Below are positions 1,688 through 44,111 of a stretch of DNA of 64,000 nt, in pieces. The translations under genes were made by a program, and so were the position numbers. The DNA lies in assembly GCA_017999615.1 (NCBI GenBank), contig JAGNLM010000001.1, positions 390,549-454,548 on the forward strand. The letters are read 5' to 3'. Each line of letters opens with the position of its first letter. Position 1 is the first letter of the stretch. The DNA is from Gammaproteobacteria bacterium (GTDB lineage: Bacteria; Pseudomonadota; Gammaproteobacteria; JAABTG01). Under the pieces are notes generated by a model. The model saw only the letters and a list, made by a program, of their open reading frames with translations. It did not search any database and was not told the origin of the DNA.

Positions 1688-1718
1688 CCGGGATGCCACC
1701 ACCCCGGCGTGCCGGTCC

Positions 1719-2582
<864 letters not shown>

Positions 2583-2741
2583 CGGCGCATCCCGACGCAA
2601 GGGGGCTTGGATGATACGCGGACGCTCCGTCGTCACAAGACTCCGGTGCCTCGGCCCGCCCCCGAAACGGCCGGAACGGCCGCGTCTCGAACCCTCGATT
2701 CCCGCGGTTCGGAGGGGGCTAAAAAAAATTTCTCCCAGCCC

Positions 2742-2769
2742 TTGCTATCTGCTCCGGAGGTCCTAATAT
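2742..2769 (+). promoter_or_regulatory. Sigma-70-like promoter for the KamA operon
   Basis: TTGCTA (2742-2747) and TAATAT (2764-2769) are separated by 16 bases in a locally AT-richer stretch, about 105 bases before the aminomutase start. Both elements are close to consensus, which is rare by chance in DNA this GC-rich. An A8/T3 tract (2721-2731) just upstream could act as an UP-like element. The rest of the 2583-2875 gap shows no gene. Confidence 0.55.
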
Positions 2770-2875
2770 CTCGCGCCAACCTGGCCCCGCGAGGGGCCGC
2801 CGCGCGAGGCCGCCACCGGCCCGCAAAGCGGCTACCCCGGGTGGCTTCGGGCTCGTGCACCGTGAGGGGATTTCC

Positions 2876-22741: not shown

Positions 22742-22800
22742 GCCTCGACGGGGGGAAGGGCGAAGGGGACGGCGCCCTGCTGCCCCCGGGACCACGGGAC

Positions 22801-23676: not shown

Positions 23677-24701
23677 AGGCGTCTGCGCTGCCCTCGAGGA
23701 CGCACGGGGGCTGGTCCCGCGTCGGCCGGGCGAGACTCGCCGGGCTCGGGCTGCTGGCGCTCGTGGTCTTCGCCCTGCCGCCGTTGTTCCCGGGAAACTA
23801 CTTCGTCACCGTGGTCGGCGTGTCCGTGGGGTTTCACGTGATCCTCGCGGTCAGCCTGAACCTCCTGGTCGGTTACGCCGGGCAGATCTCCCTCGGCCAC
23901 GCGGCCTTCTTCGGAATGGGGGCCTACGCCTCCGGCATCCTGACCACGCAGTACGCTTGGAGCCCCTGGCTCGCCCTCTCGGCGGGGCTTCTCGCCGTCT
24001 TCGTCGTGTCGAGCCTCCTCGCGCGGCCGGTGCTCAAGCTGAAGGGTCACTACCTGGCCATGGCGACGCTCGGCTTCGGGATCATCGTGCACATCGTGCT
24101 GGTCCAGGCAGTCGGGGTGACGGGCGGGCCCGACGGGCTGTCGGGCATTCCGACCCTTTCGCTGCTCGGCTGGCAGGTGGCGGCCGATCAGGACTGGTAC
24201 TGGGTCGTGGCGGTGGCGATGCTCGCCGTGATCGCCCTCTCGCTGAACGTCGTCGACTCCCGCGCGGGGCGGGCCCTTCGCGCGGTTCACGGCGCCGAGC
24301 TGGCGGCGCAGATGATGGGTATCGACAGCGCGCGCACGAAGAGCCAGGTCTTCGTGCTCTCCGCGGTGCTCAGCAGCTTCGCCGGAAGCCTCTTCGCCCA
24401 CCAGCAGAGCTTCATCAGCCCCGACTCCTTCAGCTTCTACGTGTCCATCGAGCTGCTGACGATGGTGGTCCTTGGCGGGATGGCCTCCACGTACGGCGCC
24501 GTCTTCGGCGCGGTGACCCTCACGGTGCTGCGGGCGACGCTGGTGGTGTTCCACGACTACGAGATGCTGGTCCTCGGCGCGGTGCTGATGACCATCATGA
24601 TCTTCCTGCCCCAGGGCCTGTTCGTGGGGCTCGCCCAGCTGCTCCGCCACGCCCTCGCGCGGCACCGTTCCCCGGAGGCCTTCAGCGATGGCGCTGCTTG
24701 A
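23673..24701 (+). CDS. livM: Branched-chain amino acid ABC transporter permease LivM
   Basis: The 342-residue permease has the LivM hallmarks LNLLVGYAGQISLGHAAFFG and TGGPDGLSGIP plus a VVLGGMASTYGAVFGA coupling loop. GTG 23673 is chosen because it overlaps the livH stop (GTGA) and begins just before the first membrane segment. Its 3' end overlaps livG by 14 bases, so the whole permease/ATPase set is coupled. Confidence 0.92.
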   Translation: MKASALPSRTHGGWSRVGRARLAGLGLLALVVFALPPLFPGNYFVTVVGVSVGFHVILAVSLNLLVGYAGQISLGHAAFFGMGAYASGILTTQYAWSPWLALSAGLLAVFVVSSLLARPVLKLKGHYLAMATLGFGIIVHIVLVQAVGVTGGPDGLSGIPTLSLLGWQVAADQDWYWVVAVAMLAVIALSLNVVDSRAGRALRAVHGAELAAQMMGIDSARTKSQVFVLSAVLSSFAGSLFAHQQSFISPDSFSFYVSIELLTMVVLGGMASTYGAVFGAVTLTVLRATLVVFHDYEMLVLGAVLMTIMIFLPQGLFVGLAQLLRHALARHRSPEAFSDGAA

Positions 24702-29518: not shown

Positions 29519-31236
29519 TCCGCGGCCCGGTCCTTGGACCCCGCGGGGGAGGCGGGCTCCAGCGAGTCGGCCAGCCTCACGAGCTTCAGGAACTCGGACC
29601 GGTGACCCTCGGGGTCATCTCCCCGGGCACCCTGCGCGAGTTTGACGATTGCCTCGTACCCGAAGCCCTCCAGGTAGGTCCCGCCCCGCAGCCGCTGCCC
29701 GAAGGCGGCCACCGCCGCGGCGAACCGGAGGTCGTCCGAGGCCCCGCCCAGGTCGGCGCGCACGGTGGCGCGGGCGACCGGGCGCTCGATCAGGCTGCTC
29801 GCGGCCTCGTCGGCCTTCTTGTAGCGCACCCGCACGAACGCGAGCTCCCGGGAGTGGCCTCCGGCGGCTGCCTGGGGCTGGTAGCGCAGGGGCTCGACCC
29901 GCTCGCCGCCGCTCCCGGCGAGGGCGATCTCGTAGAGGGCCGTGACCGACTGCCCCGCCCCCACGTCACCGGCGTCCACGCGGTCGTTGGCGAAGTCCTC
30001 GCGGCGGAGCTGCCGGTTCTCGTAGCCGATGAGACGGTACTCCGAGACCGCGGAGGGGTTGAACTCGACCTGCACCTTGGCGTCCCGGGCCACGGTGAGC
30101 AGGGTGCCGCCCAGGTTCTCCACCAGGACCTTGCGCGCCTCCTGGAGGTCGTCGATGTAGGCATAGGCCCCGTCGCCGTGGTCGGCGAGCTGTTCCATCA
30201 GGCGCTCGTTGTAGTTGCCGGTGCCGAACCCGAGGGTGGTCAGCGCCACGCCGTGCGCCCGCTCCCGCTTGACGAGGTCTACGAGGGCGTCGTGGCCGAC
30301 CACGCCCACGTTGAAGTCCCCGTCGGTGGCCAGCAGGACGCGATTGATACCCCCGGGGATGAAGCCCTCGCGGGCCTTGGCGTAGGCGAGCTGGATGCCG
30401 GCCGCGCCGTGGGTGGGGCCGCCGGCCTCGAGCCGGTCGATGGCCGCCTCGATGGTGGCCTTGCGGTCGCCCGGGGTCGGCTCCAGGACCACGCCGCTCG
30501 CCCCCGCGTAAGCCACCAGGGCAACCCGATCCTGGGCGCCGAGTCGCCGGACCAGGAGGCGCAGGGACTGTTTGACCAGGGGCAGCTTGTCCGGGGACTT
30601 CATGGACCCGGAGACGTCCACCAGGAACACGAGGTTCGCGGGGGGCAGCCGCTCGGGCGGCGGCGCCCAGGTCTTCACCCCGATGCGCAGCAGGTGGGTC
30701 TTCGGGTTCCACGGCGAGGGCGCGACCTCGGTCGTCACCGCGAAGGGGGCGTCACGGTTCGTGGGTGCGGCGTCGGAGTAGGCGAAGTAGTTGATCAGCT
30801 CCTCGGTGCGCACCGCGTCCGCAGGTGGCAGCCGGCCCTGGTTGAGGAACCGGCGCACGTTGGAATAGCTGCCCGTGTCCACGTCGAGGGAGAAGGTGGA
30901 CACCGGCAGTTCGGCGACCCGCTTGACCGGATTGTCGTCGAAGTGGGCGTACTGCTCCCGGTCCAGCGGTGCCGACGGGGTCCGCAGGTCGAGCGCGGGG
31001 CTGTCCGCCATGGAGTAGGCGGCCGCGGGGGCGGACCCCTGCGGGGCGCCGGGGGCCATCCGGACCCGCGTCTTGCCTCTGTCCTCAGGTTCCGGGCTCG
31101 ATGCGGTTCGAGCCTCGTTCTGGGTGGATACGGGGCCGTTTCCTTGCGTGCTCGGGGCCGAGGGCGACGTGTGCAGGTTGCACGCGCCGAGGGTGAGCAG
31201 GACGACGGGTACGGCGAGCAGATGGCGCAGGGACAT
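29515..31236 (-). CDS. VWA-domain lipoprotein (YfbK-like, DUF3520-type C-terminus)
   Basis: The 573-residue product is a lipoprotein (LTLGAC, Cys19) with a low-complexity Ser/Pro/Glu linker and an N-terminal YfbK-type region (PVSTFSLDVDTGSYSNVRRFLNQG, the family hallmark before the VWA). The von Willebrand A domain has an intact metal site (VDVSGSMKSP). A C-terminal beta-rich region (LAFVRVRYKKADE) follows. The ATG at 31236 has GGAGG 10 bases upstream; a GTG at 31245 is too close to it. The protein heads the operon with an ECF sigma and its anti-sigma, so it may belong to the envelope signal that controls them. Ligand unknown. Confidence 0.87.
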   Translation of the reverse strand: MSLRHLLAVPVVLLTLGACNLHTSPSAPSTQGNGPVSTQNEARTASSPEPEDRGKTRVRMAPGAPQGSAPAAAYSMADSPALDLRTPSAPLDREQYAHFDDNPVKRVAELPVSTFSLDVDTGSYSNVRRFLNQGRLPPADAVRTEELINYFAYSDAAPTNRDAPFAVTTEVAPSPWNPKTHLLRIGVKTWAPPPERLPPANLVFLVDVSGSMKSPDKLPLVKQSLRLLVRRLGAQDRVALVAYAGASGVVLEPTPGDRKATIEAAIDRLEAGGPTHGAAGIQLAYAKAREGFIPGGINRVLLATDGDFNVGVVGHDALVDLVKRERAHGVALTTLGFGTGNYNERLMEQLADHGDGAYAYIDDLQEARKVLVENLGGTLLTVARDAKVQVEFNPSAVSEYRLIGYENRQLRREDFANDRVDAGDVGAGQSVTALYEIALAGSGGERVEPLRYQPQAAAGGHSRELAFVRVRYKKADEAASSLIERPVARATVRADLGGASDDLRFAAAVAAFGQRLRGGTYLEGFGYEAIVKLAQGARGDDPEGHRSEFLKLVRLADSLEPASPAGSKDRAAD

Positions 31237-31355
31237 GGGGTTCACTCCTCCGTAGGGTGGTACGGACTCCAGAACGGGGAATCGGGCCGGATGGGGTTAA
31301 ACCGGCCCGGGGTGCCCGCTCGCCGGAGGGTCCCTGTTCGCCTCCGTCGCCCGGC

Positions 31356-32756
31356 TCAGAAGAGTCGGTTCAGGCCGTTCAGGGCTGCCACGCGGTATGC
31401 CTCCGCCATGGTGGGGTAGTTGAAGGTCGTGTCGGCGAAGTAGGCGATGGAGTTCCCCGGCGGCTGTTGCGCCATGATGGCCTGGCCGATGTGCACGATC
31501 TCCGAGGCGCCCTCGCCGAAGCAGTGGATGCCGAGGAGCGCGAGGGTCTCCCGGTGGAAGAGGAGCTTCAGCATCCCCACCGTGCGCCCCGTGATCTGGG
31601 CGCGCGCGAGCCCCTGGAAGCGGGCCCGTCCGACCTCGTAGGGCACCTGCTCCGCGGTGAGCTCGCGCTCGGTCCTGCCGAGCGAGCTGATCTCCGGGCT
31701 GGTGTAGATCCCGGTCGGCGCCGACTCGACCATCCTCCGCTCGCAGGCCCCCCCGACGATGTGGGTCGCCGCGTAGCGGCCCTGATCGAGGCTCGCGCTG
31801 GCCAGCGCCGGCGGGCCAATCACGTCGCCCACCGCGTAGATGTGGGGATGCGCCGTCTGCAGCGAGCCGTTGACCTCCACCTGGCCGCGGCTGTTGACCC
31901 GCACGCCGAGGTCCTCGAGCGCGAGGCCCGCCGTGTTTCCGGTGCGCCCGTTGGCCCAGAGGAGCACGTCGGCCCGGAACTTCTTGCCCGAGCGGCAGTG
32001 CAGCACCACCCCGTCGTCCCGGGGCTCCACGCCCGCGGCCGTTTCGTCGTTGCGGATCACGACGCCGAGGTTGCGCAGGTGATAGCTGAGTGCGTCGGTG
32101 ATCTCGTCGTCCAGGAAGTTCAGGAGACGGTCCCGCGTGTTGACCAGGTTCACCTGCACGTCGAGGTGCGCGAAGACCGAGGCGTACTCGCAGCCGATGA
32201 TGCCCGCGCCGTAGATGGTGATCGACCGGGGTGTGTAATCGAGGCTGAGGATGCTGTCGCTGTCCCGCACCCGGGGGTGTGAGAAGTCCACGTCCTCGGG
32301 GTGATAGGGATGCGACCCCGCCGCGACGACGAAGGTGTCCGCGTGGTACTGCTCCCGCCCGCCCTTGGGCAGGGTGACCTCGACCGTGTGGGGGTCCACG
32401 AAACGGGCGTTGCCCTCGACCAGGCTCACGCCGTTACGCACGTAGTTGCGGTGGTGGGTGCGGACCTGCTCGGCGATGACGGAGTGCGCCCCGCGCAGCA
32501 GTTCCGGGTAGGACACGCTGACGTGCCCCACCGCCCCCTGGAACAGCGGGCTGCGGCGGAAGTCGGCCAGTTGCTGAACGGCCTGACGCAGGGCCTTGCT
32601 CGGGATGGTCCCCCAGTGGGTGCAGCCGCCGCCGACCCGAGGGTTGCGGTCGATCACGGCCACCCGGCGGCCGGACTTGCTGAGCTTCATGGCGGCCCCT
32701 TCGCCGCCCGGGCCACTGCCGATGACGATGACGTCGAAAACCTGGTCGCTCCCCAT
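31356..32756 (-). CDS. sthA: Soluble pyridine nucleotide transhydrogenase
   Basis: SthA transfers hydride between NADPH and NAD+. The 466-residue flavoprotein has the FAD site ([12 protein letters not shown]) and the SthA version of the disulfide-reductase loop, [13 protein letters not shown], in which the second redox cysteine of lipoamide dehydrogenases is Thr. NAD(P)-binding ([14 protein letters not shown]) and C-terminal dimer domains follow. ATG 32756 has a GAGGAG site inside the end of nrdJ, 11 bases downstream of whose stop it lies, so the two genes are probably co-transcribed. Confidence 0.93.
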
Positions 32757-32767
32757 GCTGGGCTCCT

Positions 32768-35614
32768 CTACCCGCAGGCGCCGATGGCGCCGCAGGCCGT
32801 GCAGAAATCGCATCCGTCCCGGCGGACGACCGTATACCCCCCGCACTCCTCGCAGCGCCGGCCGGGCTGGGTTCCGGGATTGCCTCCGGAGCGGGGTCCG
32901 GCACCCTCGACGACCCCCATCGGCTCGACCGGGAAGCCGTCGCCGTCGAGGATGCCGAGCATGGCATAGCGGTGGAGGATGAGCGCGGCCAGGTAGGCCA
33001 CCGTCGAGGGATAGCTCCGCTGGCGGTGCCTGCCGGGCTCCCAGGCGAGGAAGTCCCCGCGCGGCTCCGGGAAGTCGGCGATCTGGCGCAGCTTCGCCCC
33101 GACCCAGGCGGGGTCGATCACGCGCATGTCGTAGGAGAGGCTCTTGCAGAGCCCGTCCAGGACCCGCGGATAGGCGCCCGAGAGCCAGACGGAGTAGGGC
33201 CGGCGCTTGCCGTCGGGGAGGACGAGCTCCTTCAGCCCCATCACGAAGTCGTCCCCGGTGGCCGGGTTCAGGATGTCCACGGTCCAGGAAAGCGTGCCGT
33301 CGGTGCCCGTCTTGGGCTCCTTGGGGCTCATCAGGGCGTCCAGCACGGGGGTGGGCCCCAGGTCCTCGAAGGCCCCGAGCTCCGTGCAGCGCAGGTGTAC
33401 GAGGCGCGCGAAGCCCGCCACGAGGCTCGGAACGCGCACGGGCTCCCCGGAAGGCGGCATGGGCAGGTCGAAGGCATCGTCGCCCGAGGCCCGCATCAGG
33501 CTCTCGAGCTTGGTTCGCAGCCAGCCCCGGTCGTTCGAGCGCATGTCCATCGACAGGCTCTTGGCGAGCGCCCCGAGTCCCCGGGGTTGCTCCGCCCCGT
33601 TGACCCAGACCTCGAAGGGGTAGCTCCGCCCGCCGTCCTCGACGTGCCCGATGAAGACCGCGAAGCTGCCGAGCGGGTGATCGATCAGGTAGGTCCAGGC
33701 GGGATTGCCGTTGACCGGCCGCGGCCTGCGCTGCCAGCGCAGGCTCGCAAGCGCGGGCCGGGGCACCCGGTCCAGGCGTAACCGGCGGTCTGCATCGGAG
33801 AGGTCCAGGTCCTGGCGGTCCACCACGGGCCCCGGCCGAGGCTCCGGCGCGGGCGTCTGCGCGGGCGCGGGCTCGACCGAGAGCACCGATCCCGTCACGG
33901 GATTCGGGCGGAAGGTCGCGAGTCCCTTCAGCCCCGCGCGCCAGGCGTGCAGGTAGAGGTCCCGGAAATCGGTGAAGGGGTAGTCGGCCGGCACGTTGAC
34001 GGTCTTCGAGATGGCGGCGTCCACATAGGGCTGCACCGCCTCCAGCATCCGCATGTGCTCAATGGCCGTGATCTCGAGCGCCGTGACCCAGTGCCCCGGG
34101 AGACGCGCGGCGTCGCCCCCGGTCTCGCGGTACAGGCGGAAGGCGTGGTCCTCGACCCGGTACTCGTCGTGCCCACCGTCGGCGCGGCGCTTGCGCCGGG
34201 TGTAGGTCCAGGAGAAGGGGGGCTCGATCCCGTTGGAGGCGTTGTCGGCGAACGCGAGACTGATGGTGCCCGTGGGTGCGACCGACAGCAGGTGACTGTT
34301 GCGCAGCCCGTGCTCGCGGATGCGCTCGCGCAGGGCGTCCGGGAGTCGCGCGGCGAAATCCGAGGCGAGATAACGCTCGGCGTCGAAGAGCGGGAAGCGG
34401 CCCTTCTCCCGGGCGAGGTCCGCCGAGGCCCCGTAGGCCGCGTCGCGCATCGTCCGGGCGACGCCGGCGGCCCGGGCCCGTGCGTCGACCGTGTCGTAGC
34501 GCAAGCCCAGCATGATCAGCGCGTCCCCGAGGCCCGTGAAGCCGAGCCCCACCCGCCGCTTGGCGGTCGCCTCGGCGCGCTGCTGCGCGAGCGGCCAGAA
34601 GGTCGACTCCAGGACGTTGTCGAGCATGCGGACGGCGACCGCGCAGACCTCCGCCAGACGTGCCTCGTCGAAGCGGGCCGCGTCGGTGAAGGGCTCCTCC
34701 ACGAAGCGCGTGAGGTCGACGCTGCCGAGGCAGCAGCAGCCATAGTCGGGCAGGGGCTGCTCGCCGCAGGGATTGGTCGCTTCCAGCCGCTCGCAGTAGC
34801 CGAGGTTGTTCTCGGCGTTGGCGCGGTCGACGAAGAAGACGCCCGGCTCCGCGTGGTCGTAGGTGCTCCGTGTGATGGTGTCGAAGAGCTCGCGGGCGCG
34901 CACCGTGCGGTAGACCCAGCGCCCGTCCGCCCGCCGGTGGGCGCCGGCGGCGAGGAGATCCCCGGATGGCTCCGCCCGGTGCACCAGCTCCCACGGCCCG
35001 TCGGTCTCCACCGCGCGCAGGAAGGCGTCGGTGAGGGCGACCGAGAGGTTGAAGTTGGTGAGCTCGCCCTTCGCATCCTTGGCGTGGACGAACGCCTCCA
35101 CGTCGGGGTGGTCGCAGCGCAGGATGCCCATCTGCGCGCCGCGCCGGGCACCCGCGCTCTCCACCGTCTCGCACATCCGGTCGAATACCCGCATGTAGGA
35201 GACCGGCCCGGAGGCCTTGCTGGCGGTGCCGCGCACCAGCGCCCCCTGGGGACGGATGCGGGAGAAGTCATAGCCCACGCCGCCCCCCCGGCGCATGGTC
35301 TCGGCGGCCTCGGAGAGCGCCACCATGATCCCGGGCTTGCCGTCCTCCTCTCCGAGTGTCGCGTCGCCGACCGGCTGCACGAAGCAGTTGATGAGGGTTG
35401 CCCGGATGTCGGTGCCCGCGGCGCTCATCACCCGCCCGGCGGGGATGAATCCCGCGCGCATCGCATCGAGGAAACGGGCCTCCCAGGCGGTGGGCTCGCG
35501 CTCGACGGCCGCCAGCGCGCGGGCTACGCGCCGCTGGACGTCCTCCAGGGTCCGCTCCTCTCCCTTGGCGTACTTCTCCAGCAGGACATCGATCGAGATG
35601 GGTTGCGTGGCCAT
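32768..35614 (-). CDS. nrdJ: Adenosylcobalamin-dependent ribonucleotide reductase, class II
   Basis: NrdJ makes deoxyribonucleotides with a coenzyme-B12 radical, so it works with or without oxygen. The 948-residue protein starts with an ATP-cone-like segment, then the RNR barrel with the reactive cysteine pair ([10 protein letters not shown] and [18 protein letters not shown]), a GGVGYDFS substrate loop and a C-terminal part with two similar TSCPD-type modules ([16 protein letters not shown] and [15 protein letters not shown] regions). The tail ends in [22 protein letters not shown], a redox/zinc cysteine cluster. No B12 riboswitch was recognised in the 82-base gap upstream. Confidence 0.94.
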
Positions 35615-35696
35615 TTCCTAGTATGGGCTCCGCGGGCAGCGTTTGAGTATCCGTCCCGGGTGTCCGGGCATGTGCGCCGGTGTCCGCGCCGATGAC

Positions 35697-38600
35697 TCAA
35701 GGCGCGCTCACCGTCCAGTTCCCTTTGAGGGGCATCACCCATGGTTCGGAGGGCGGGGCCTCCTCGACGTTGCTCGTGGCGGTGTGCGTGTAGGTGCCCT
35801 CGAGCGTGCCCTGGGCCGTGCTGTCGGAGGTGGCGATCCCGGACAGCGTGCCCTCGACCTTGCCGACCCAGCGAAAGACCAGGGTCTCCTTGACCTCGGT
35901 GACCGTCAGCCCGCTCTTGGTCAGGGTTGCCTTGGGGACCTTGATGACGTCCTTCTGCTCGCGGCTCGATGACCCCACGAAGCTCAGACTCAGCGAGCCG
36001 GAGGCGGGAGCATAGCTGCCCGACACCTTGACCTCGGCATGTCCCTTCACGCTTCTGTCCTCCTCGTAGAAGACGGGAAAGCGGAAGCTGCCTTCGACCA
36101 CGTCGCCCGGTCCGACCGTGAGCGTCAGCGATGTGCTGACGGGGGCTGCCGACTCGGCCTTCAGCGTCCCGCTGAGGGTCTTGCCCGCAAGCTTGGCGAA
36201 CGCGGACCCCCCGGCCATCGGTGGTGCGTTGGGTGGGGCGCGGGGACCGTCCTCGGTCTCGTCGCGCCCACCCTCGTCGTCCCCGTCCGTCTCCTGCTCG
36301 CCTTCGCCGTTGCTCCCCGTCTCCTGCTCGTCGCCCGCGTCCTGCCGGTCTCCGGTGCCCCCTGGGGTTCCCTTGGCTCCCGGCCGCCTGCCCTTGCGTC
36401 CCTCGAGCTGTCCCTCGGGGGGTGGGTTGCGGTCCAGGCCCACAGTGCCCTGGGCGAGCGAGGGGTCCGGCGGGTCGAAGGGTAGCCCCGACCGGGCGAA
36501 CTGGCTCAGGTTCTGGGCGATGGCCCTCTGCTGGCCTGCGAGAGTCTTCGGGCCGAGTTGCTGCTGGGCGTCGAGGCCGGCCTTGTCGTACCCCAGGAGA
36601 CTGCTGATCAGTGCGGTGCTGAAGCTCTGCACGGGCCCGATCTGGTTCAGTCCGGTTCCGATGAGATATCCGCCGCCGGCGGAGATTGCCACCGCGCCGG
36701 CCACGATGACTCCGCCCCCGGGCAGTGCGGCGATGAAGCTCACCGGCTGCTGCAGGGCCCCCCAAAAGCCTCCCACCAGGGTGAGCGTGCCCGACACCTC
36801 CTTGCCGTAGAGCTGCGCCCCTTGCCTGACGTCCTGCAGTGCGTTGCGGGCCTGCTGGAAGAATCCAGCCTGATTGGGGAGGCCCGCCTCCTGCAGCCGC
36901 CTGACCGCAGCCTGCGACTCGCTCAGGCCGGTCGGAACCCGTGGTGGCAGGGCGTAGCCCGGTGGGGCGCGGTGTGGGAACCCCTTGGAGAGCAGGCTCT
37001 GATAGGTGGCCCGCTGTCCCGGGTCGAGGCCGGCACCGGGCTGCCAGAGGGTCGGGCCGCCGGTGGGGGCCAGGTTCTTGCTCGCGAACTGGGCCAGGTC
37101 GCGGCCGGCCGAGCTGAGCGGGTCGACGCCCGGGACCGGAGCCGGCGGGAGCGAGGTGCGAACGAAGTTGCGGACTGCGGGAAGCGACCGCACGAACTCG
37201 TCGAACGTGCTGGCGCTCTGCGTCCCGAGCGGGTCCACGCGGTTCACGGGGTCGTTGTCGAGGAAGGCGTAGGGTTCCAGGCTCGCGGGGTTGGCGGCAT
37301 CGCCCGGCAGGGGATCCGGGGCGAGGAAGCGTGCGAGCTGCGGGGCATACCAGCGCGCCCGGTAGTGGTAGAGCCGGGTCGCCGGGTCGTAGAGCCGCCC
37401 CTGGAACCGGAAGGAGTTGGGAGTCTCCTCGCGGGCCTCCAGTGGCTCCCCGAAGGGTCCGTAGAGGTAACGGTTGAGGACCCGACCCTGTCCGTCGAGG
37501 ACCGCGAGCACGCTCTGGTCGAGGTCGGTGACGTAGTACTGGGGCTGGCCGTCCTGCAGCCGCGCGAGGTGCTCGTCCAGGCGGTCGCCATCGAGGTAGG
37601 CGCTGCGCACCCGACCCTGGCCGTCGGTCTCCGCTGCCACGGACCGGCCGTCCACCAGGTAGCGCACGCTGTCCCGCCCCTCGACTCGCTCGGCCAGGTT
37701 GCCTTCCCCGTCGTAGCGGTATTCGACCGCCGCCCGCCCCGAGGGCTCGACGCGCACCAGGTCCTCCCCGGCGTAGGCGAACCGGACCGCGCCCGCGCCG
37801 GAACGGCTCTCGGCGAGGCGGCCCCGGGCGTCCCAGCCGAGTACTGTCTCGGCCGTGCCGTCGCGCAGGCGCCCGGGCCGCCCGGTCGGGTCGATCTCGA
37901 ATCGGGTGGAGCCGGCCTGCACCAGGCTTCCGCCGCGGTCGTAGGCGTACTCGCGCCGGGACCCGTCGGGCAGGCGCGCGGCGGCGAGCCGCCCCACCGC
38001 GTCGTAGGCGTACTCGAACCGCTTCCCGTCGTGGTCGGCGGAAACGAGGCGTCCGCTGGTGTCCCAACCGTAGCGCACGCCAAGGAGCGGTTGACCCGAG
38101 GCGTCGCGCACGGTGAGGGACTGCACCCTGCCTTCCGGGTCGTAGGCATACTCGGCGCTGGCGGTCTGGCCGTAGTGCACCCGCTTGCGGCGGCGCAGCG
38201 GGTCGTGCTCGACTCGCACCTCGGCCTCGCCGAGCCGCGCCCGCACCAAGTTGCCCTCGCGGTCACGCTCGTATTCGCTGTGCAGGCCGCCCGGCAGGGT
38301 CCTCGTCAACGCGAGTCCGTCGGCGTCGTACGTGTAGTCGACCGCTTGCCCGCTCCGTTGTTCCTGGACCCGGCTCAGATTGCCCGCGGGGTCGTACGCA
38401 TAGCTGAGCGCCCCACCTGGCCAGGTGTTCCGAGCCAGCCGACCGAAGCCGTCGTAAGCGAAGGACTGCTCCCCGGCGCCCGGGCGGTGCAGGCCGGCGA
38501 GCCGTCCCGCGCTGTCCCACGCATAGCGCTCGCCCGACCCATCGCTGCCGGCGCGCTCGATGAGCCGCCCGGCCTCGTCGTAGGTCAGGCGCTCGGTGCG

Positions 38601-40619
38601 GCCGTCGGGTGTGCCGCGGCTCGTGAGCCGGCCTGCGCGGTCCCAGCCGAAGGTCCAGCTCCGTCCTGCGCCGTCGCTCAGCCGCGTCAGCCGTCCGACA
38701 GCGTCGTACTCGAGGGTCGCCGCGGCCTGTCCCGCCTCCTCGACACGGGTGAGGTGCCCGCTGGCGTCGTAGGCGAAACGGCGCCGCGCAGCCCCGGCCC
38801 ACTCGACCTCCGACAGTTGGCCGGTGCTGCCGTAGGCATAGCGGACCGTGCCGGACCGCAGGCCGCTCGCCTCCCGCAACCGCCCGGGCAGGTCGTAGGC
38901 GTAACGCAGCCAGGCCCCGTCGGGGAAGGTGACCTCGGTCAGCCGTCCCAGCGCGTCCCGGCTGTATCGGGTGCGCCGGCCGTTCACCTCCACCCACGTG
39001 GGCTCGCCGCGCGGGTCGAGGCTCGCCACCGTCTGATTGCCCCGGGCGTCCACCTGACGCAGTTGGCGTCCGTCGGGCGACACCTGCACCAGGTGCGTGC
39101 GCCCGTCCGGGTCCCGGTGTCCTCGCGGCCGGCCGGCGCGATCGTAGTAGTACTCGGTGAGTCGGCCGAGGGCGTCGACCGCGGTGAGCGGGTTGCCCAG
39201 GGCGTCGTAGGTGTAGCGTTCCCGCCTGCCGTCGGGGGCGGTGGCGGCGGTGATGCGCCCCAGGGCGTCCCGGGTCAGGGTGACGGCGGCGCCGTCGCTG
39301 CCGCGGACCGCCGTCAGGCGCCCTTCATCGTCGTAGCCGTATGCAGTGAGGGAGCCTCCCTCGTCCTGGACACCAGTCACTCGTCCGTTGGGGTCGCGCG
39401 TCAGGAGGGTTCGCCCCGCGGGAGACTGGACCTCGCTCAGCGTACCGCCCGGGCCTGCGTAGACAAAGGTCTCTCGAGTGCCGTCCGGGGCGGCACGGGC
39501 CGTCACGCGGTGGCGCGAGTCGTAGGCGAATGCCACCGCGCGGCCCGCCGGGTCCTCGATGCGCACCAGCCGGCCGTGCGGGTCGAAGGTCTTGGTGGTG
39601 GTGGCGCCTTGTGCGTCCGTGACGCGGACCTCGCGACCGTCCTTGCGGAAGCGCCACCCGGCCGTGCGCCCCGCGGGGTCCGTGAGCGTGGTGGAATCCG
39701 ACTCGCCGTCTCCCCCGTAGCGAAAGGTGGTGACGGCACCGCCGGCACCCCGGAGGCTCGCGACCCGCCCCTCGCCGTCGTACTCGACCACGGACTCGGC
39801 GCCCTCGGGCCAGCTCATCCGGCTGAGCCTTCCTCGGTCGTCCCAGCCAAAGCCGCTCGCGAGCCCGGTGAAGTCGACGACACGGATCAGGCGCCCCGCG
39901 GGGTCGTACTCGAGCCGCGCAGCCCGTCCGATCCCGTCGCGCGCCTCGGTGAGGCGGCCGGCCTCGGAGAACGTCAGCTCGAGCAGGGTGGCATCCGCTG
40001 TGCGCAGGGCAGCCGGGCGGTCCGGGGGGCCTTCCAGGGCCACCTCGTTGCCGCCGGCGGTGACGCTCCGCAGCCGTCCCTCCCGGTCGAATCGGCGGTG
40101 GCCCGCCGCATCCTCGACGGTGTAGCCGTCGGGGGTGCTCCGCAGCACCGAGAGGCCACGGTCGGCGAAGAGGCCGCCTTGCCCCGGCCGGAAGCGCCGG
40201 GTCTCTCCGGCAGGCTCCAGCAGGACGACGTCAGGTCCCGTGGGGACCAGGCGGGCCTCCAGGCTCGAGCCCCAGCCGGGGCCGAGCCAGGACCCTCCGG
40301 GCACACCGCCGACCCCGGTCAGGTGGAACCGGAAGCCGCCGTCGCCGAGGGGCAGGTGGAGGAGGGGCAGCGTGACCACGAGTGTGCCGGTGCGGGGCAG
40401 CACCGCGACCCGCGGGTCGTGGACGTAGGCGTCGACGGCAAGCGATTCGGCCTCGGCCTGCGGGGCATTGCCCACCAGGGCGGTCGGGCCGAGTGCCGAT
40501 GCAGGTGCGGAAACGCCCGCCCACACCATCATCGCCAGCGCTCTCCAGGTCCGCCGGAATGTCGCTCGCGCCGTGGGGCGGGACACTTTCGTGATGCTGC
40601 GAGGGGACTCTGCGTGCAC
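35697..40619 (-). CDS. Large secreted RHS/YD-repeat protein with novel C-terminal region
   Basis: The 1640-residue product has a probable signal peptide (RRTWRALAMMVWAGVSAPASA), a short N-terminal domain, then about 1000 residues of YD repeats (GRLTxxxx...YDAxGR pattern, more than 30 copies). The RHS core is near 37230-37420 (YLYGPFGEPLE...FRFQGRLYDPATRLYHYRARWY...FLAPDPL...YAFLDNDPVNRVDPLG). The roughly 510 residues after the core hold a hydrophobic Gly/Ala segment, an acidic Glu/Gly/Asp linker and a terminal beta-rich, Ser/Thr-rich domain with no nuclease or deaminase motif. GTG 40619 is assumed; GTG 40586 is possible. No immunity gene follows: nrdJ is next after 82 bases. Confidence 0.88.
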   Translation of the reverse strand: MHAESPRSITKVSRPTARATFRRTWRALAMMVWAGVSAPASALGPTALVGNAPQAEAESLAVDAYVHDPRVAVLPRTGTLVVTLPLLHLPLGDGGFRFHLTGVGGVPGGSWLGPGWGSSLEARLVPTGPDVVLLEPAGETRRFRPGQGGLFADRGLSVLRSTPDGYTVEDAAGHRRFDREGRLRSVTAGGNEVALEGPPDRPAALRTADATLLELTFSEAGRLTEARDGIGRAARLEYDPAGRLIRVVDFTGLASGFGWDDRGRLSRMSWPEGAESVVEYDGEGRVASLRGAGGAVTTFRYGGDGESDSTTLTDPAGRTAGWRFRKDGREVRVTDAQGATTTKTFDPHGRLVRIEDPAGRAVAFAYDSRHRVTARAAPDGTRETFVYAGPGGTLSEVQSPAGRTLLTRDPNGRVTGVQDEGGSLTAYGYDDEGRLTAVRGSDGAAVTLTRDALGRITAATAPDGRRERYTYDALGNPLTAVDALGRLTEYYYDRAGRPRGHRDPDGRTHLVQVSPDGRQLRQVDARGNQTVASLDPRGEPTWVEVNGRRTRYSRDALGRLTEVTFPDGAWLRYAYDLPGRLREASGLRSGTVRYAYGSTGQLSEVEWAGAARRRFAYDASGHLTRVEEAGQAAATLEYDAVGRLTRLSDGAGRSWTFGWDRAGRLTSRGTPDGRTERLTYDEAGRLIERAGSDGSGERYAWDSAGRLAGLHRPGAGEQSFAYDGFGRLARNTWPGGALSYAYDPAGNLSRVQEQRSGQAVDYTYDADGLALTRTLPGGLHSEYERDREGNLVRARLGEAEVRVEHDPLRRRKRVHYGQTASAEYAYDPEGRVQSLTVRDASGQPLLGVRYGWDTSGRLVSADHDGKRFEYAYDAVGRLAAARLPDGSRREYAYDRGGSLVQAGSTRFEIDPTGRPGRLRDGTAETVLGWDARGRLAESRSGAGAVRFAYAGEDLVRVEPSGRAAVEYRYDGEGNLAERVEGRDSVRYLVDGRSVAAETDGQGRVRSAYLDGDRLDEHLARLQDGQPQYYVTDLDQSVLAVLDGQGRVLNRYLYGPFGEPLEAREETPNSFRFQGRLYDPATRLYHYRARWYAPQLARFLAPDPLPGDAANPASLEPYAFLDNDPVNRVDPLGTQSASTFDEFVRSLPAVRNFVRTSLPPAPVPGVDPLSSAGRDLAQFASKNLAPTGGPTLWQPGAGLDPGQRATYQSLLSKGFPHRAPPGYALPPRVPTGLSESQAAVRRLQEAGLPNQAGFFQQARNALQDVRQGAQLYGKEVSGTLTLVGGFWGALQQPVSFIAALPGGGVIVAGAVAISAGGGYLIGTGLNQIGPVQSFSTALISSLLGYDKAGLDAQQQLGPKTLAGQQRAIAQNLSQFARSGLPFDPPDPSLAQGTVGLDRNPPPEGQLEGRKGRRPGAKGTPGGTGDRQDAGDEQETGSNGEGEQETDGDDEGGRDETEDGPRAPPNAPPMAGGSAFAKLAGKTLSGTLKAESAAPVSTSLTLTVGPGDVVEGSFRFPVFYEEDRSVKGHAEVKVSGSYAPASGSLSLSFVGSSSREQKDVIKVPKATLTKSGLTVTEVKETLVFRWVGKVEGTLSGIATSDSTAQGTLEGTYTHTATSNVEEAPPSEPWVMPLKGNWTVSAP

Positions 40620-40757
40620 GGGGCGGGGCCCTCCGGCCGGGATCGGACTGGGGTGACTGTCGGGTGCAGCGGTCGCCCGTCGGCTCGGCTTGAGGGGACT
40701 CGGGCCGGCGCGGCGGGCGGAGTGGTGCGCATTCTACCTGGGCCCGAGGCGTGAGCC

Positions 40758-40787
40758 TTGAACCCGCTTGGCGGGCAATCCCATAAT
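40758..40787 (+). promoter_or_regulatory. Sigma-70-like promoter for the QueD-like/queE pair
   Basis: TTGAAC (40758-40763) and CATAAT (40782-40787) are 18 bases apart, 61 bases before the ATG at 40848, in a locally AT-rich patch between two divergent genes. No other strong signal was seen in the 228-base gap. Confidence 0.45.
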
Positions 40788-40847
40788 GGAAAATGTCCAA
40801 GTGGTCCCCCCCCGCGGTCGTGCTGCTCCCGGCCGGCAGTGACCCCC

Positions 40848-41942
40848 ATGCCTGAGTTGCTCTACCACCTCGCTGCCGCCCCCTTCGAGTCGGCCCGCTG
40901 GGTCGACCTGCTGGACCCCGGGCACCGGGCGGCGCGCCTGCACGGGCACAGCTTCCTCGCCCGCGTGCGGGCGGAGCTGCCCGCGGGCTGGGCGGGGTTT
41001 CCCGGCGGGGAGACCGATGCCCTCGCCGCGGCGCTCGGCGCCTGCGTCGGCCGGCTCGACTATCGGCACCTGAACGAGGTCCTGGCGGTGCCCACCGACG
41101 AGAACCTGGCGCGCTGGGTGCGGGGCTGCCTGGAGGTGCCGGGACTGGCCAGCGTCGGCATCCAGAGTACCCGGGACCAGGGGGCGGACCTCGACGGGCA
41201 GGACCACGTGCACGTCTGGCGGCGCTTTCGCTTCGAGGCCGCCCACCGGCTGCCGCGGGTTCCGCAAGGGCACCCCTGCGGGCGGATGCACGGGCACGGC
41301 TTCGAGGTCATCCTGCACGCCGACCAGGACCTGGGGACGCGCGACCTGGGGGTGGACTTCGACCGCCTGGAGGCGCTCTGGGCGCCGTTTCGGGGTGAGC
41401 TCCACCACGCCTGCCTGAACGATCTCCCGGGGCTCGAGAACCCGACCAGCGAGATGCTGGCGGCGTGGCTGTGGCGGCGGTTGCAGCCGGAGCTGCCCGA
41501 GCTCTCGTGGGTGACGGTGTACGAGACCACGACCGCGGGCTGCCACTACGACGGGGCGCACTTCCGTATCTGGAAGGAGCTGAAGTTCGAGAGCGCGCTG
41601 CGGCTCGCGCGGGCTCCGCGGGGCGACCCCCGCCGGCGCCTGCACGGGCACAGCTATCTCGTGCGCCTGCACCTCAGCGCGCCGATCGATACCGTCATGG
41701 GCTGGACGGTGGACTACGGGGACGTGAAGGAGGTCTTCCAGCCGACCTACAAGGCGCTCGACCACCACCTGCTGAACGAGCTGCCGGGTCTCGCCGACGC
41801 CGACCCGGCGACCCTGACCCGCTGGGTCCGGGAGCGGGTGGCCCCGAGCCTCCCGGTGCTCGACCGGGTCGATCTCTACGCCACTCCCGGCTGCGGGGCG
41901 ATGCTCAGCTGGGGCGAGCAGGGGCCGGCGCTGCCCACGTGA
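40848..41942 (+). CDS. Triple-domain QueD/6-pyruvoyl-tetrahydropterin synthase-like protein
   Basis: QueD converts dihydroneopterin triphosphate to 6-carboxy-tetrahydropterin for queuosine synthesis. Normal QueD is about 120 residues; this chain is 364 with three tandem T-fold repeats (about 1-118, 122-236, 240-364), each with HGH. Domain 2 keeps the zinc histidines (His133, His148, His150), Cys144 and Glu226, but has His186-His187 where the Asp-His pair is expected. Domain 3 keeps Asp305-His306 but has Leu251, Arg262 and Ala345 at zinc-His, Cys and Glu positions. Domain 1 has Arg17, Ala28, Ser107. queE overlaps its stop (GTGA). Function in deazaguanine synthesis is inferred. Confidence 0.88.
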   Translation: MPELLYHLAAAPFESARWVDLLDPGHRAARLHGHSFLARVRAELPAGWAGFPGGETDALAAALGACVGRLDYRHLNEVLAVPTDENLARWVRGCLEVPGLASVGIQSTRDQGADLDGQDHVHVWRRFRFEAAHRLPRVPQGHPCGRMHGHGFEVILHADQDLGTRDLGVDFDRLEALWAPFRGELHHACLNDLPGLENPTSEMLAAWLWRRLQPELPELSWVTVYETTTAGCHYDGAHFRIWKELKFESALRLARAPRGDPRRRLHGHSYLVRLHLSAPIDTVMGWTVDYGDVKEVFQPTYKALDHHLLNELPGLADADPATLTRWVRERVAPSLPVLDRVDLYATPGCGAMLSWGEQGPALPT

Positions 41943-42586
41943 CCTACTGGGTCAAGGAGATCTACTACACCCTCCAGGGTGAGGGTGCCTGGACGGGGAG
42001 GGCGGCGGTGTTCTGCCGCTTCGCCGGCTGCAACCTGTGGTCGGGGAGGGAGGAGGACCGGTCTGCGGCGGCCTGCCGTTTCTGCGACACCGACTTCGTG
42101 GGAACCGATGGGCCCGGCGGGGGCAGGTTCCCGGATGCCCGCGCCCTGGCCGAGGCGGTCGGCCAGGCCTGGCGGGCGGGCGCAGGCGGGGGCTCCGGAG
42201 GGTGCCCGCTCGTCGTCTGTACGGGAGGCGAGCCGCTGCTGCAGCTCGACGAGGCCCTGGTCGATGCCTTCCACGGCGAGGGCTTCGAGGTGGCGGTGGA
42301 AACCAACGGTACCCGGCCGGCCCCGGCCGGGCTCGACTGGGTCTGCGTCAGTCCCAAGGCCGGCGTGCCGCTCGCCCTCGACTCGGGCGACGAGCTGAAG
42401 CTCGTCTATCCCCAGGAAGGCGCGCCGCCCGAGGCCTACGAGCACCTGGCGTTCCGGCACCTCTTCGTGCAGCCGATGGACGGGCCCGAGCGTGAGAGGA
42501 ACACGGCACTCGCGGTGCGCTACTGCCTCGCGCACCCGCGCTGGCGGCTCTCGCTGCAGACCCACAAGCTCATCGGGGTGCCGTGA
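41939..42586 (+). CDS. queE: 7-carboxy-7-deazaguanine synthase QueE
   Basis: QueE is a radical SAM enzyme that contracts 6-carboxy-tetrahydropterin to 7-carboxy-7-deazaguanine, the step after QueD. The 215-residue product has IYYTLQGEG at the N-terminus and a CX14CX2C cluster motif (GCNLWSG through CRFCDTDF) rather than the standard CxxxCxxC, as in a known QueE subgroup. The CTGGEPLLQLD motif binds SAM. GTG 41939 overlaps the QueD-like stop, so the pair is coupled. queC and queF are not in the window. The 3' end overlaps a small antisense ORF. Confidence 0.93.
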   Translation: MTYWVKEIYYTLQGEGAWTGRAAVFCRFAGCNLWSGREEDRSAAACRFCDTDFVGTDGPGGGRFPDARALAEAVGQAWRAGAGGGSGGCPLVVCTGGEPLLQLDEALVDAFHGEGFEVAVETNGTRPAPAGLDWVCVSPKAGVPLALDSGDELKLVYPQEGAPPEAYEHLAFRHLFVQPMDGPERERNTALAVRYCLAHPRWRLSLQTHKLIGVP

Positions 42587-42701
42587 GGGGAGGGGTGGAC
42601 TCGCGCCGTTGCTCGCGCGCGTGGCGCTCGATGTGCTGCAGGGCGAGGCCCAGCAGTCCGAAGGAAGTCAACGCACCGAAGAGGAACAGGGTTGCGGTCA
42701 T
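42570..42701 (-). CDS. Possible 43-residue membrane protein
   Basis: A 43-codon frame starts at ATG 42701 with GAGGTG 5 bases upstream. Residues 2-22 (TATLFLFGALTSFGLLGLAL) form one hydrophobic helix, followed by a basic His/Arg tail. Its last 17 bases overlap the end of queE on the opposite strand. It lies 114 bases downstream of ampG and may end that transcript. No family was recognised; the ribosome site and clean helix-tail layout are the support. Confidence 0.45.
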   Translation of the reverse strand: MTATLFLFGALTSFGLLGLALQHIERHAREQRRESTPPLTAPR

Positions 42702-42815
42702 GGGCACCTCTGTCGTGGTGGATATCAAAGAGATAGGCGCGCCATGCCGGTTGCGCCAGGCGCAGGTTCACAGCTTGTGACGCAGTGCCGGATCCGGGGT
42801 CGCCCGGCTCGGCGA

Positions 42816-44111
42816 TCAAGGGCTCGCCGATTCCGGAGCCGGCTCCGGCGTGGCCTTCCCCGGAGCGCCCGGCACTCGGGGCGTCAGCCACACCAGGAGC
42901 AGGAGGCCGGGTACGGCGGCGAGCGTGCTCACCGCGAAGAAGGGGATCCAACCGAGCCCCTGAGCCAGTGCGCCGCCCGCGGCGGACAGCGTGGTGCGTG
43001 CGACCGCCGCCAGGGAGGAGAGCAGGGCGTACTGGGTTGCGGTGTAGGCCAGGCTGCAGAGGCTCGAGAGGTATGCGACAAATGCCGCGGACCCCATGCC
43101 GCCAGTGAGGTTCTCCACGCCGATGGTCACCATGAGCACCGGGACCGAGTGACCCACCACCGCCTGGGCGGCGAACATCAGGTTGGACAGCATCTGCAGG
43201 ACGCCGGTCACGAGGAGCGCGCGCAGTACCCCCAGCCGGTAGACGATGGCCCCTCCGGCCAGGACCCCCGCGATGGTAGCTGCGACGCCGAACACCTTGC
43301 TGACGTTGGCGATCTCGATCCGGGTGAAGCCCATGTCCACGTAGAAGGCGCTGGTCATGACCCCGGCCAGTGCGTCACCGAGCTTGAACAGCAGGATGAA
43401 CACCAGGATCGGTACCCAGTGGGCGCGCCGGGTCAGGTCGACCAGCGGCTCGAGGAAGGCGGCCCGCAGCCACTGGGCGGGGGCCTGGGGGCCTGCTCCC
43501 CTCGTCGAGGCTGCCGGCTCGGGGGTCGCCCAGACCGCCGCCATGGCGGGGAGCAACAGCAGGGCCATCCCCGAATAGGCCACTGCCCAGCCGAAGAACT
43601 CCGCCAGATACAGGGCCCCGGCGCCGGATGCGACCATGCCCAGGCGGTAGCCGACCTGCGTGGCGGCCGCGCCCGCGCCCTGTTCACGCTCGTCGAGGAG
43701 CTCCACGCGGAAGGCGTCGATCACGACGTCCTGACTCGCGGAGAGGAATGCCACGGTGACGGCGGCGACGGCGGTTGCGAGCGGTGCGCCGGCGGGGTCG
43801 CTGCCCGCGAGCAGCAGGATCGCGGCGAAGAGGGCGGCCTGGACGAAGAGCGTCCAGCTCCGCCGGCGCCCCATGCGGCGTCCGAGCCACGGCAGCCGCA
43901 CCTGGTCCAGGAGGGGTGCCCAGAGAAACTTCACGTTGTAGGCGAGCCCCACCAGGGCGAAGAGGCCGATGGCGGTGAGCGACAGGCCGTCCTGGCGCAT
44001 CCAGACGGCGAGCGTCGCGCCCGTCAGGGCGAGCGGCAGGCCACTCGCGAACCCCATGACGAGGATCGCGAGCATTCGGGGGTCACGGTACAGGCTCAGT
44101 GCGGAGGACAC
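42816..44111 (-). CDS. ampG: AmpG-like muropeptide MFS permease
   Basis: AmpG imports anhydro-muropeptides for peptidoglycan recycling. The 431-residue MFS protein has the AmpG-type first helix (LAILVMGFASGLPLALTGATLAVWM), a LGLAYNVKFLWAPLLDQ-like segment after helix 2, the SASQDVVIDAFRVELL loop and about twelve membrane segments. It follows mrcA and a small membrane protein on the minus strand, fitting a peptidoglycan context. The family call is firm; a fatty-acid or other MFS substrate is less likely. Confidence 0.88.
   Translation of the reverse strand: MSSALSLYRDPRMLAILVMGFASGLPLALTGATLAVWMRQDGLSLTAIGLFALVGLAYNVKFLWAPLLDQVRLPWLGRRMGRRRSWTLFVQAALFAAILLLAGSDPAGAPLATAVAAVTVAFLSASQDVVIDAFRVELLDEREQGAGAAATQVGYRLGMVASGAGALYLAEFFGWAVAYSGMALLLLPAMAAVWATPEPAASTRGAGPQAPAQWLRAAFLEPLVDLTRRAHWVPILVFILLFKLGDALAGVMTSAFYVDMGFTRIEIANVSKVFGVAATIAGVLAGGAIVYRLGVLRALLVTGVLQMLSNLMFAAQAVVGHSVPVLMVTIGVENLTGGMGSAAFVAYLSSLCSLAYTATQYALLSSLAAVARTTLSAAGGALAQGLGWIPFFAVSTLAAVPGLLLLVWLTPRVPGAPGKATPEPAPESASP

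What the first reader, a model, noticed from the sequence alone, without database searches (positions are those of the whole stretch)
35697..37230. RHS protein with an unrecognised beta-rich C-terminus and no immunity gene
Seen: after the RHS core the roughly 510-residue tail has a Gly/Ala hydrophobic segment, an acidic linker and a Ser/Thr-rich beta domain, with no nuclease-type motif. Polymorphic RHS toxins usually have an adjacent immunity gene; here nrdJ follows after 82 bases. The role may be structural or adhesive, or the tail may be a new effector type.
Basis: partly seen in the sequence, partly recalled or inferred. Interest (0 to 1): 0.55.

Follow-up and report, generated by a model that had tools for sequence, protein, structure and literature searches.

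The report
RHS cage protein with beta-barrel tail
This is a secreted RHS cage protein whose long tail ends in a predicted small beta-barrel; a related species carries the same tail with no neighbouring protective gene, so it looks like a fixed part of the protein rather than a swappable toxin.

Summary
The gene (40619..35697, minus, 1640 aa) is the only RHS gene detected in its genome. Its 508-residue tail has a region with a Gly/Ala-rich hydrophobic stretch, an acidic linker and a 170-residue Ser/Thr-rich beta domain; no known toxin family matched, and nrdJ starts 82 bases downstream. A same-genus genome carries an ortholog (71%) with the same tail, at another locus, again without a recognisable immunity gene. 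Core and tail share the same synonymous divergence (0.7-0.8), so they travelled together; the folded tail parts are under purifying selection (dN/dS 0.16, 0.30). In that genome the flanking genes lie about 190 bases apart without RHS, so the gene is a roughly 5.08-kb presence/absence unit with no room for an immunity gene. The beta domain is modelled as an eight-stranded meander barrel (pLDDT 80; only 2 of 5 models good) whose hydrophobic face is the conserved one, favouring a soluble barrel. I read it as an exported RHS shell displaying a binding or docking barrel, not a polymorphic toxin. A membrane-acting payload in the hydrophobic stretch is the main rival. Function is inferred, not shown.

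The parts
35697..40619 (-). RHS/YD-repeat gene, 1640 aa, GTG start
   Evidence: only RHS gene found in the genome (all 20 PF05593 matches lie inside it)
40491..40619 (-). N-terminal signal-peptide-like segment (residues 1-43; hydrophobic run ending ASA|LG), judged by eye
   Evidence: translation; ortholog has an equivalent segment. No signal-peptide predictor was available
37224..40490 (-). RHS/YD shell (residues 44-1132), ending in DPLG
   Evidence: PF05593, TIGR03696, PF25023 matches; 71.6% identical to the ortholog, dN/dS 0.26
36465..37223 (-). Pre-linker tail region (residues 1133-1385)
   Evidence: 80.6% identical to the ortholog, dN/dS 0.16; AlphaFold2 model unusable, pLDDT 35.4
36636..36791 (-). 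Gly/Ala-rich hydrophobic stretch (residues 1277-1328)
   Evidence: hydropathy maximum of the protein at residues 1293-1323; residues 1244-1343 are 84% identical, dN/dS 0.11
36210..36464 (-). Acidic low-complexity linker (residues 1386-1470)
   Evidence: 19 D/E, 19 G, 11 P of 85 residues; shortened and diverged in the ortholog, dN/dS 0.70 over 47 aligned residues
35697..36209 (-). C-terminal beta domain (residues 1471-1640), predicted eight-stranded meander barrel
   Evidence: (pLDDT 80.1, pTM 0.70, 8 strands), fold comparison, 67.6% identical to the ortholog
35654..40736 (.). Presence/absence unit: window sequence between the colinear flanks that the same-genus genome lacks at this site; contains only the RHS gene
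   Evidence: left-hand shared sequence ends at 35653 in the window and 22127 in G001:C25; right-hand similarity resumes near 40737
32768..35614 (-). nrdJ-type ribonucleotide reductase; flank, not part of the unit
   Evidence: PF02867/PF00317; 97% identical copy in G001 beside PTPS without RHS
40848..41942 (+). 6-pyruvoyl-tetrahydropterin-synthase (PTPS) family gene; flank, not part of the unit
   Evidence: PF01242, 3 stretches; start shared with G001; promoter-like site 40758-40787

Best explanation
The gene encodes an exported RHS/YD-repeat shell protein with a fixed, lineage-specific C-terminal module, not an exchangeable toxin tip. Shown: the architecture, the conserved tail in a second species, purifying selection on the folded tail parts, shared divergence of core and tail, absence of any recognisable adjacent immunity gene at both loci, and presence/absence of the whole gene as a unit. 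Predicted: the last 170 residues form a small eight-stranded antiparallel meander barrel with a hydrophobic interior. Inferred mechanism: Sec exports the protein, the YD repeats close into a shell, the conserved 253-residue region packs in or against the shell, and the flexible acidic linker lets the barrel protrude as a ligand-binding, docking or surface-attachment domain. Because the barrel is not a cytoplasmic toxin, no cognate immunity protein is needed. What it binds is unknown.
For: Ortholog L005:824-5626 keeps every part: 71% overall, beta domain 67%, pre-linker 80%. NG86 dS is 0.77 core, 0.72 pre-linker, 0.80 beta with overlapping bootstrap intervals, so no tail swap since the common ancestor. 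dN/dS is 0.16 and 0.30 for the folded parts versus 0.70 for the linker. The insert unit 35654-40736 has 43 bases after the stop and about 117 before the start, no room for an immunity gene. The two ORFs over 100 aa in the 526 bases after the ortholog's stop match no Pfam family and have a lower third-position GC than the RHS gene (0.75 and 0.61 against 0.93). The beta domain model has eight strands, pLDDT 80.1; VIA-align finds 8-stranded barrels: OmpX Z 11.5 (3.0 A, 120 aligned), NHBA C-terminal domain Z 10.0 (2.7 A, 107), TbpB Z 9.9 (3.1 A, 109), avidins Z 8.5-9.3. In the strands the hydrophobic face keeps 52 of 61 residues between the orthologs and the polar face 34 of 61 (Fisher p 0.0006; 0.005 with strands cut in pieces), with 12 of 13 strand glycines on the hydrophobic face, as expected if that face is the interior. 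The sheath marker VipB of type VI secretion was not found in the genome, and hmmscan lists no PAAR domain.
Against: Only two sequences carry the tail, so co-inheritance is one comparison. Three of five AlphaFold2 models of the barrel were poor (pLDDT 41-47), Foldseek gave nothing at E <= 0.001, and the top VIA rows are outer-membrane barrels, close to the soluble ones in Z. The most conserved part of the tail is the hydrophobic stretch, which this reading leaves without a clear job. Binding partner and export are not shown; the signal peptide was judged by eye. Both aspartates of the RHS autoprotease appear to be present (D1102, D1129), which would suit a released payload.
Confidence: 0.5

Rival explanations
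1. Membrane-acting effector. The Gly/Ala-rich hydrophobic stretch of the pre-linker is a pore-forming or membrane-inserting payload held in the RHS shell, as in Tse5, and the barrel is a targeting or plug domain. Immunity is encoded elsewhere or not needed because the target side of the membrane is not exposed in the producer.
For: Hydropathy maximum of the protein at residues 1293-1323, in the most conserved hundred residues of the tail (84% identity, dN/dS 0.11). Tse5 is an Rhs protein with a pore-forming C-terminus (PMC10684867, passages). Both conserved aspartates of the autoprotease seem present.
Against: The C-terminal domains of bacterial teneurin-like proteins average about 15 kDa and nearly all have an immunity gene immediately downstream (PMC13018210, passages and one section); here the tail is 508 residues with none. 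No Pfam toxin match. VipB not found in the genome. The pre-linker could not be modelled.
Confidence: 0.25
2. Outer-membrane anchor. The barrel inserts in the outer membrane as an OmpX-like eight-stranded barrel and tethers the RHS shell to the cell.
For: Best VIA-align rows are OmpX, Ail and OprF (Z 11.5, 11.2, 10.8); long strands 5 and 6 in the model.
Against: The hydrophobic face is the conserved one and carries 12 of 13 strand glycines, more like a packed interior than a lipid-facing surface; the C-terminus reads TVSAP, not the aromatic end typical of outer-membrane barrels (recalled).
Confidence: 0.08
3. Secretion handle. The barrel works like the C-terminal barrel of type 11 (Slam) secretion cargo and takes the RHS shell across the outer membrane.
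For: Fold resemblance to TbpB and NHBA barrels (Z about 10). T11SS cargo has a C-terminal eight-stranded barrel behind variable effector domains, lipidated or soluble (PMC12282271, passages). The same genome holds a Slam-type locus with a TbpB_B_D cargo end.
Against: No Pfam match to TbpB_B_D (E up to 10) and no profile similarity to the genome's own TbpB-type barrel end (hhalign probability 0.14%; Neff only 1.25). The Slam gene found is interrupted by a prlF-yhaV cassette, and it lies on another contig (C21) than the RHS gene (C1).
Confidence: 0.07
4. Decayed or orphan tip. A former toxin tip that lost its immunity gene and function.
For: No immunity gene; genus-restricted tail in what could be searched.
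Against: Intact reading frames in both species; dN/dS 0.16 and 0.30.
Confidence: 0.04

Closest known systems
Polymorphic Rhs toxins of type VI secretion (RhsA, Rhs1, Tse5)
   Same: YD-repeat shell ending in a DPxG-type core end followed by a C-terminal extension
   Different: No PAAR domain listed; signal-peptide-like N-terminus; VipB not found in the genome; tail 508 residues; no recognisable immunity gene; tail not exchanged between the two known copies; first DPxG motif reads DPLP with 23 residues between motifs instead of 18-19, and Thr follows the second instead of Leu
Bacterial teneurin-like proteins (TLPs; PMC13018210)
   Same: RHS/YD shell, partial match to PF25023 (47.1 bits against a cut-off of 50)
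   Different: TLP C-termini are about 15 kDa, highly variable, and nearly all followed by an immunity gene; here none of this holds
T11SS (Slam) cargo with C-terminal TbpB-type barrel (PMC12282271)
   Same: Eight-stranded C-terminal barrel after a larger N-terminal part; Sec-type N-terminus
   Different: No sequence match to TbpB_B_D; not beside a Slam gene; no lipobox seen by eye; 'rhs' does not occur in PMC12282271
Avidin-type and designed soluble meander barrels
   Same: Predicted topology and size (Z 8.5-9.8)
   Different: 5-17% identity; no sequence evidence for homology or for biotin binding

Membership tests
RHS/YD-repeat protein | Array of RHS/YD repeats and an RHS-associated core end | tested here: met
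   PF05593 8e-88 with 19 stretches; TIGR03696 1.4e-21 at residues 1053-1132
Polymorphic Rhs toxin | Recognisable toxin domain in the C-terminus | tested here: not met
   No Pfam, NCBIfam or PADLOC toxin family over its cut-off; best below cut-off Pyocin_S E 0.086
Polymorphic Rhs toxin | Adjacent immunity gene | tested here: not met
   82 bases to nrdJ, which also exists without RHS in G001; no recognisable gene in 526 bases after the ortholog
Polymorphic Rhs toxin | C-terminal tip evolutionarily decoupled from the core | tested here: not met
   Core and tail show the same dS (0.77, 0.72, 0.80), but only one pair of sequences exists
Polymorphic Rhs toxin | Autoprotease motif DPxG-x18-DPxG with two catalytic aspartates | tested here: inconclusive
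   D1102 and D1129 conserved in both orthologs, but first motif DPLP and 23-residue spacing; motif definition from PMC10684867 passages
Type VI-delivered Rhs effector | PAAR or related N-terminus and a type VI apparatus in the genome | tested here: not met
   No PAAR match in hmmscan; VipB not found in a 98.98% complete genome, control E. coli rings
T11SS (Slam) cargo | C-terminal barrel of the TbpB_B_D or lipoprotein C sequence family | tested here: not met
   (no such family listed up to E 10)
T11SS (Slam) cargo | Barrel fold like TbpB/NHBA | tested here: inconclusive
   Z 9.9-10.1, close to outer-membrane and designed barrels
T11SS (Slam) cargo | Gene next to a Slam/DUF560 gene | tested here: not met
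   Slam pieces are on contig C21, RHS on C1
Outer-membrane beta-barrel | Lipid-facing hydrophobic exterior | tested here: inconclusive
Avidin family | Biotin-binding residues | not tested
   Only fold similarity seen

The most novel reading that the evidence does not exclude
A single-gene mobile unit that carries an RHS cage with a C-terminal eight-stranded barrel as its export, anchoring or display handle: an RHS protein that uses its tail to dock on cells instead of injecting a toxin, the bacterial counterpart of the switch from toxin to adhesion receptor proposed for teneurins.
Probability: 0.15. Interest if true: 0.65.

Novelty: new variant of a known kind. Interest (0 to 1): 0.38.

Why it matters
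The RHS proteins in the papers read here are toxin cages with variable tips and immunity partners. A secreted RHS protein whose whole tail, including a predicted ligand-binding-type barrel, is conserved between species and has no recognisable immunity partner would be a candidate non-toxin RHS protein in bacteria. That would make testable whether RHS cages were already used for binding before animal teneurins took that role. It is also a warning that not every unknown RHS tail is a toxin.

Tried and rejected
Wrong-frame queries: the finding's range 35697-37230 is one base out of frame. I used it as a protein (protein 2; protein 2); those tail results say nothing about the real tail. The in-frame tail was then searched in PDB sequences (one weak row, 3rwx, E 0.011), plasmids and phages (none), 369 class genomes and genome contigs. 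One search's hit in G001 came through DNA conservation and was re-established in frame.

Wider search for the tail: genome contigs gave 1 relative out of 60 pattern matches, the same G001 contig. Beta domain alone: self only, 1 of 299 phylum genomes.

Tail as a Slam cargo: profile comparison with the genome's own TbpB-type barrel end gave nothing. Viral fold library: nothing at E <= 0.001. Pre-linker structure: unusable model, so not searched. Short repeats at the ends of the insert: none beyond 8 bases. PDB profile matches for the beta domain, a hemagglutinin at E 0.025 and a protein named angel homolog 2 at 1.4, are short or weak and were not followed. Pfam MtrC (E 0.019) on the hydrophobic stretch is below its cut-off and probably rests on composition. 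A fourth comparator gene (dld-like) was sliced out of frame (28% identity) and dropped; three comparators remain.

Literature searches for RHS proteins without immunity, RHS surface adhesins and RHS with T11SS found no paper describing this arrangement in the library held; that library lacks most subscription journals.

Full report
What is there. The gene runs from 40619 to 35697 on the minus strand and encodes 1640 residues. The whole protein matches RHS_repeat (PF05593, 8e-88, 19 stretches), Rhs_assc_core (TIGR03696, 1.4e-21, residues 1053-1132) and, just under its cut-off, the teneurin YD-shell (PF25023). The N-terminus has an arginine-rich stretch, a hydrophobic run and ASA|LG, which I read by eye as a Sec signal peptide; no predictor was available. 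No PAAR domain was listed. A search of the whole genome with PF05593 gave 20 matches, all inside this gene, so it is the only RHS gene detected in a 98.98% complete genome.

The tail. After DPLG (residues 1129-1132) come 508 residues. Residues 1133-1385 include the most hydrophobic stretch of the whole protein (best 19-residue windows start at 1293-1296). Residues 1386-1470 are acidic and low in complexity (19 D/E, 19 G, 11 P of 85). Residues 1471-1640 are the Ser/Thr-rich beta domain. Pfam up to E 10 and the PDB sequences gave no credible match to either folded part; NCBIfam and PADLOC, run on the whole protein up to E 1, listed nothing for the tail that comes near a cut-off.

A second copy. 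A genome of the same genus (G001; its contig is titled 'uncultured Ectothiorhodospiraceae bacterium' in genome contigs, CALMKJ010000205.1) carries a 1600-residue ortholog, L005:824-5626. It is 71% identical overall, with the beta domain at 67%, the pre-linker at 80% and the linker shortened. The contig also carries an SRAP gene 91% identical in protein to one in the window's genome, so it very probably belongs with this genus. Three other genomes of the family (G002-G004) were searched in frame with the tail profile and have no match. G004 has an RHS protein with a different tail, and G001 has a second RHS gene, 28% identical in the core, to whose tail the alignment does not extend.

Co-inheritance and selection. 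By NG86, dS between the two copies is 0.77 for the core, 0.72 for the pre-linker and 0.80 for the beta domain, with overlapping bootstrap intervals; dN/dS is 0.26, 0.16 and 0.30, and 0.70 for the linker. Core and tail have therefore stayed together since these copies parted, and the folded tail parts are under purifying selection. Enterobacterial Rhs cores and tips are described as evolutionarily decoupled (PMC2935791, abstract). This is one pair only.

Position in the genome. In G001, nrdJ (97% identical) and the PTPS gene (87%) lie about 190 bases apart on contig C25 with no RHS between them. The flanks are colinear: window 30001-35653 with C25 16475-22127 (94.4% DNA identity) and window 40841-42998 with 22304-24462 (89.2%). 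The window's extra piece is about 35654-40736, 5.08 kb, holding only the RHS gene, with 43 bases after its stop and about 117 before its start. Whether it was gained here or lost in G001 cannot be told. G001's own copy sits right after the SRAP gene; in the window's genome the similarity ends at the SRAP stop, and the contig ends about 300 bases later without an RHS gene. The flanking genes have dS 0.17 (nrdJ) and 0.33 (PTPS), and SRAP 0.11, against about 0.77 for RHS. The two RHS genes are thus older than the split of the two genomes at these loci: paralogs or separately acquired copies. Frequent gain and loss of RHS genes is known (PMC2935791, abstract).

No immunity gene. The 82 bases between the RHS stop and nrdJ hold no ORF of 20 codons or more. 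On the other side, three such short ORFs of 23-33 codons lie in 40620-40850, all on the plus strand and none convincing. After the ortholog's stop, 526 bases precede a ferritin-family gene; the two overlapping ORFs of over 100 residues there match no Pfam family and have lower third-position GC than the RHS gene (0.75 and 0.61 against 0.93). In bacterial teneurin-like proteins an immunity gene follows almost every gene and the C-terminal domain is about 15 kDa (PMC13018210, passages and one section). An unlinked immunity gene cannot be excluded.

Fold of the beta domain. AlphaFold2 on two sequences gave an eight-stranded all-beta model, pLDDT 80.1, pTM 0.70; the five models scored 80.1, 75.5, 46.8, 42.6 and 40.6. 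Foldseek found no match at E <= 0.001. VIA-align on Foldseek's candidates gave OmpX Z 11.5 (rmsd 3.0, 120 aligned), Ail 11.2 (3.9, 131), OprF 10.8 (3.3, 118), NHBA 10.0 (2.7, 107), TbpB 9.9 (3.1, 109) and avidins 8.5-9.3. So the closed meander barrel is a fair prediction, but its family is open. To separate a membrane barrel from a soluble one I split each strand into its two faces. The hydrophobic face keeps 52 of 61 residues between the orthologs, the polar face 34 of 61 (Fisher p 0.0006; 0.005 with long strands cut in pieces), and 12 of the 13 strand glycines are on the hydrophobic face. A conserved, glycine-rich hydrophobic face is what a packed interior should look like; I infer a soluble barrel.

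How it most likely works. Shown: an RHS protein with a fixed, selected tail and no recognisable immunity partner. Inferred: Sec export, closure of the YD shell, packing of the pre-linker region in or on the shell, and display of a binding barrel on a flexible acidic linker. A type VI route is unlikely (no PAAR listed; VipB not found). Autocleavage is open: both aspartates (D1102, D1129) are conserved, but the first motif reads DPLP, the spacing is 23 and the residue after the second motif is Thr; Tse5 cuts after Leu in a DPXG-X19-DPXG motif (PMC10684867, passages).

Rivals. The strongest is a membrane-acting payload in the hydrophobic stretch, since residues 1244-1343 are the best conserved hundred of the tail (84%, dN/dS 0.11) and Tse5 is a pore-forming Rhs protein. 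The alpha-helical CDI ionophores and the beta-barrel Ntox25 type (PMC11630599, abstract and passages) are known kinds of membrane toxin; neither showed up by sequence here. A Slam/T11SS handle is attractive because the genome has a TbpB-type cargo end and Slam pieces, but the sequence and neighbourhood tests fail and the transporter gene looks interrupted. An outer-membrane anchor is disfavoured by the face analysis.

Verdict. The thing is a new variant of a known kind: an RHS protein with a non-exchanged, probably barrel-ended tail. Interest is moderate, because function and partner are unknown and only two copies exist in what could be searched.

Noticed in passing
L055 (G000:C21) 263-574, 787-1239, 2915-3253: The window's genome has a Slam-type (T11SS) locus on another contig: a TbpB_B_D cargo end (PF01298, 1.4e-8) followed by a Slam-like TPR piece and a SlipAM C-terminal piece, separated by an HTH gene and a prlF-yhaV toxin-antitoxin cassette (PF15937 9e-44, PF11663 4e-61). 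The Slam gene looks interrupted.
   Followed up: partly
window 40848-41942: The PTPS-family gene beside the RHS gene has three PTPS stretches in one ORF; it is followed by a gene resembling QueE by eye.
   Followed up: no
window 32768-35614: nrdJ is 97% identical between the two species while the best copies in the other family members are 53-54% identical and align only over about the first 580 residues; its 948-residue product extends about 380 residues past the matched barrel domain.
   Followed up: no
L031 (G001:C21) 1639-5934: G001's second RHS gene also ends in a tail of about 240 residues that looks beta-rich by eye; Pfam lists nothing there.
   Followed up: partly
L005 8838-12529: The contig of the ortholog carries several PIN-like toxin ORFs downstream (by eye), suggesting an accessory region.
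   Followed up: no
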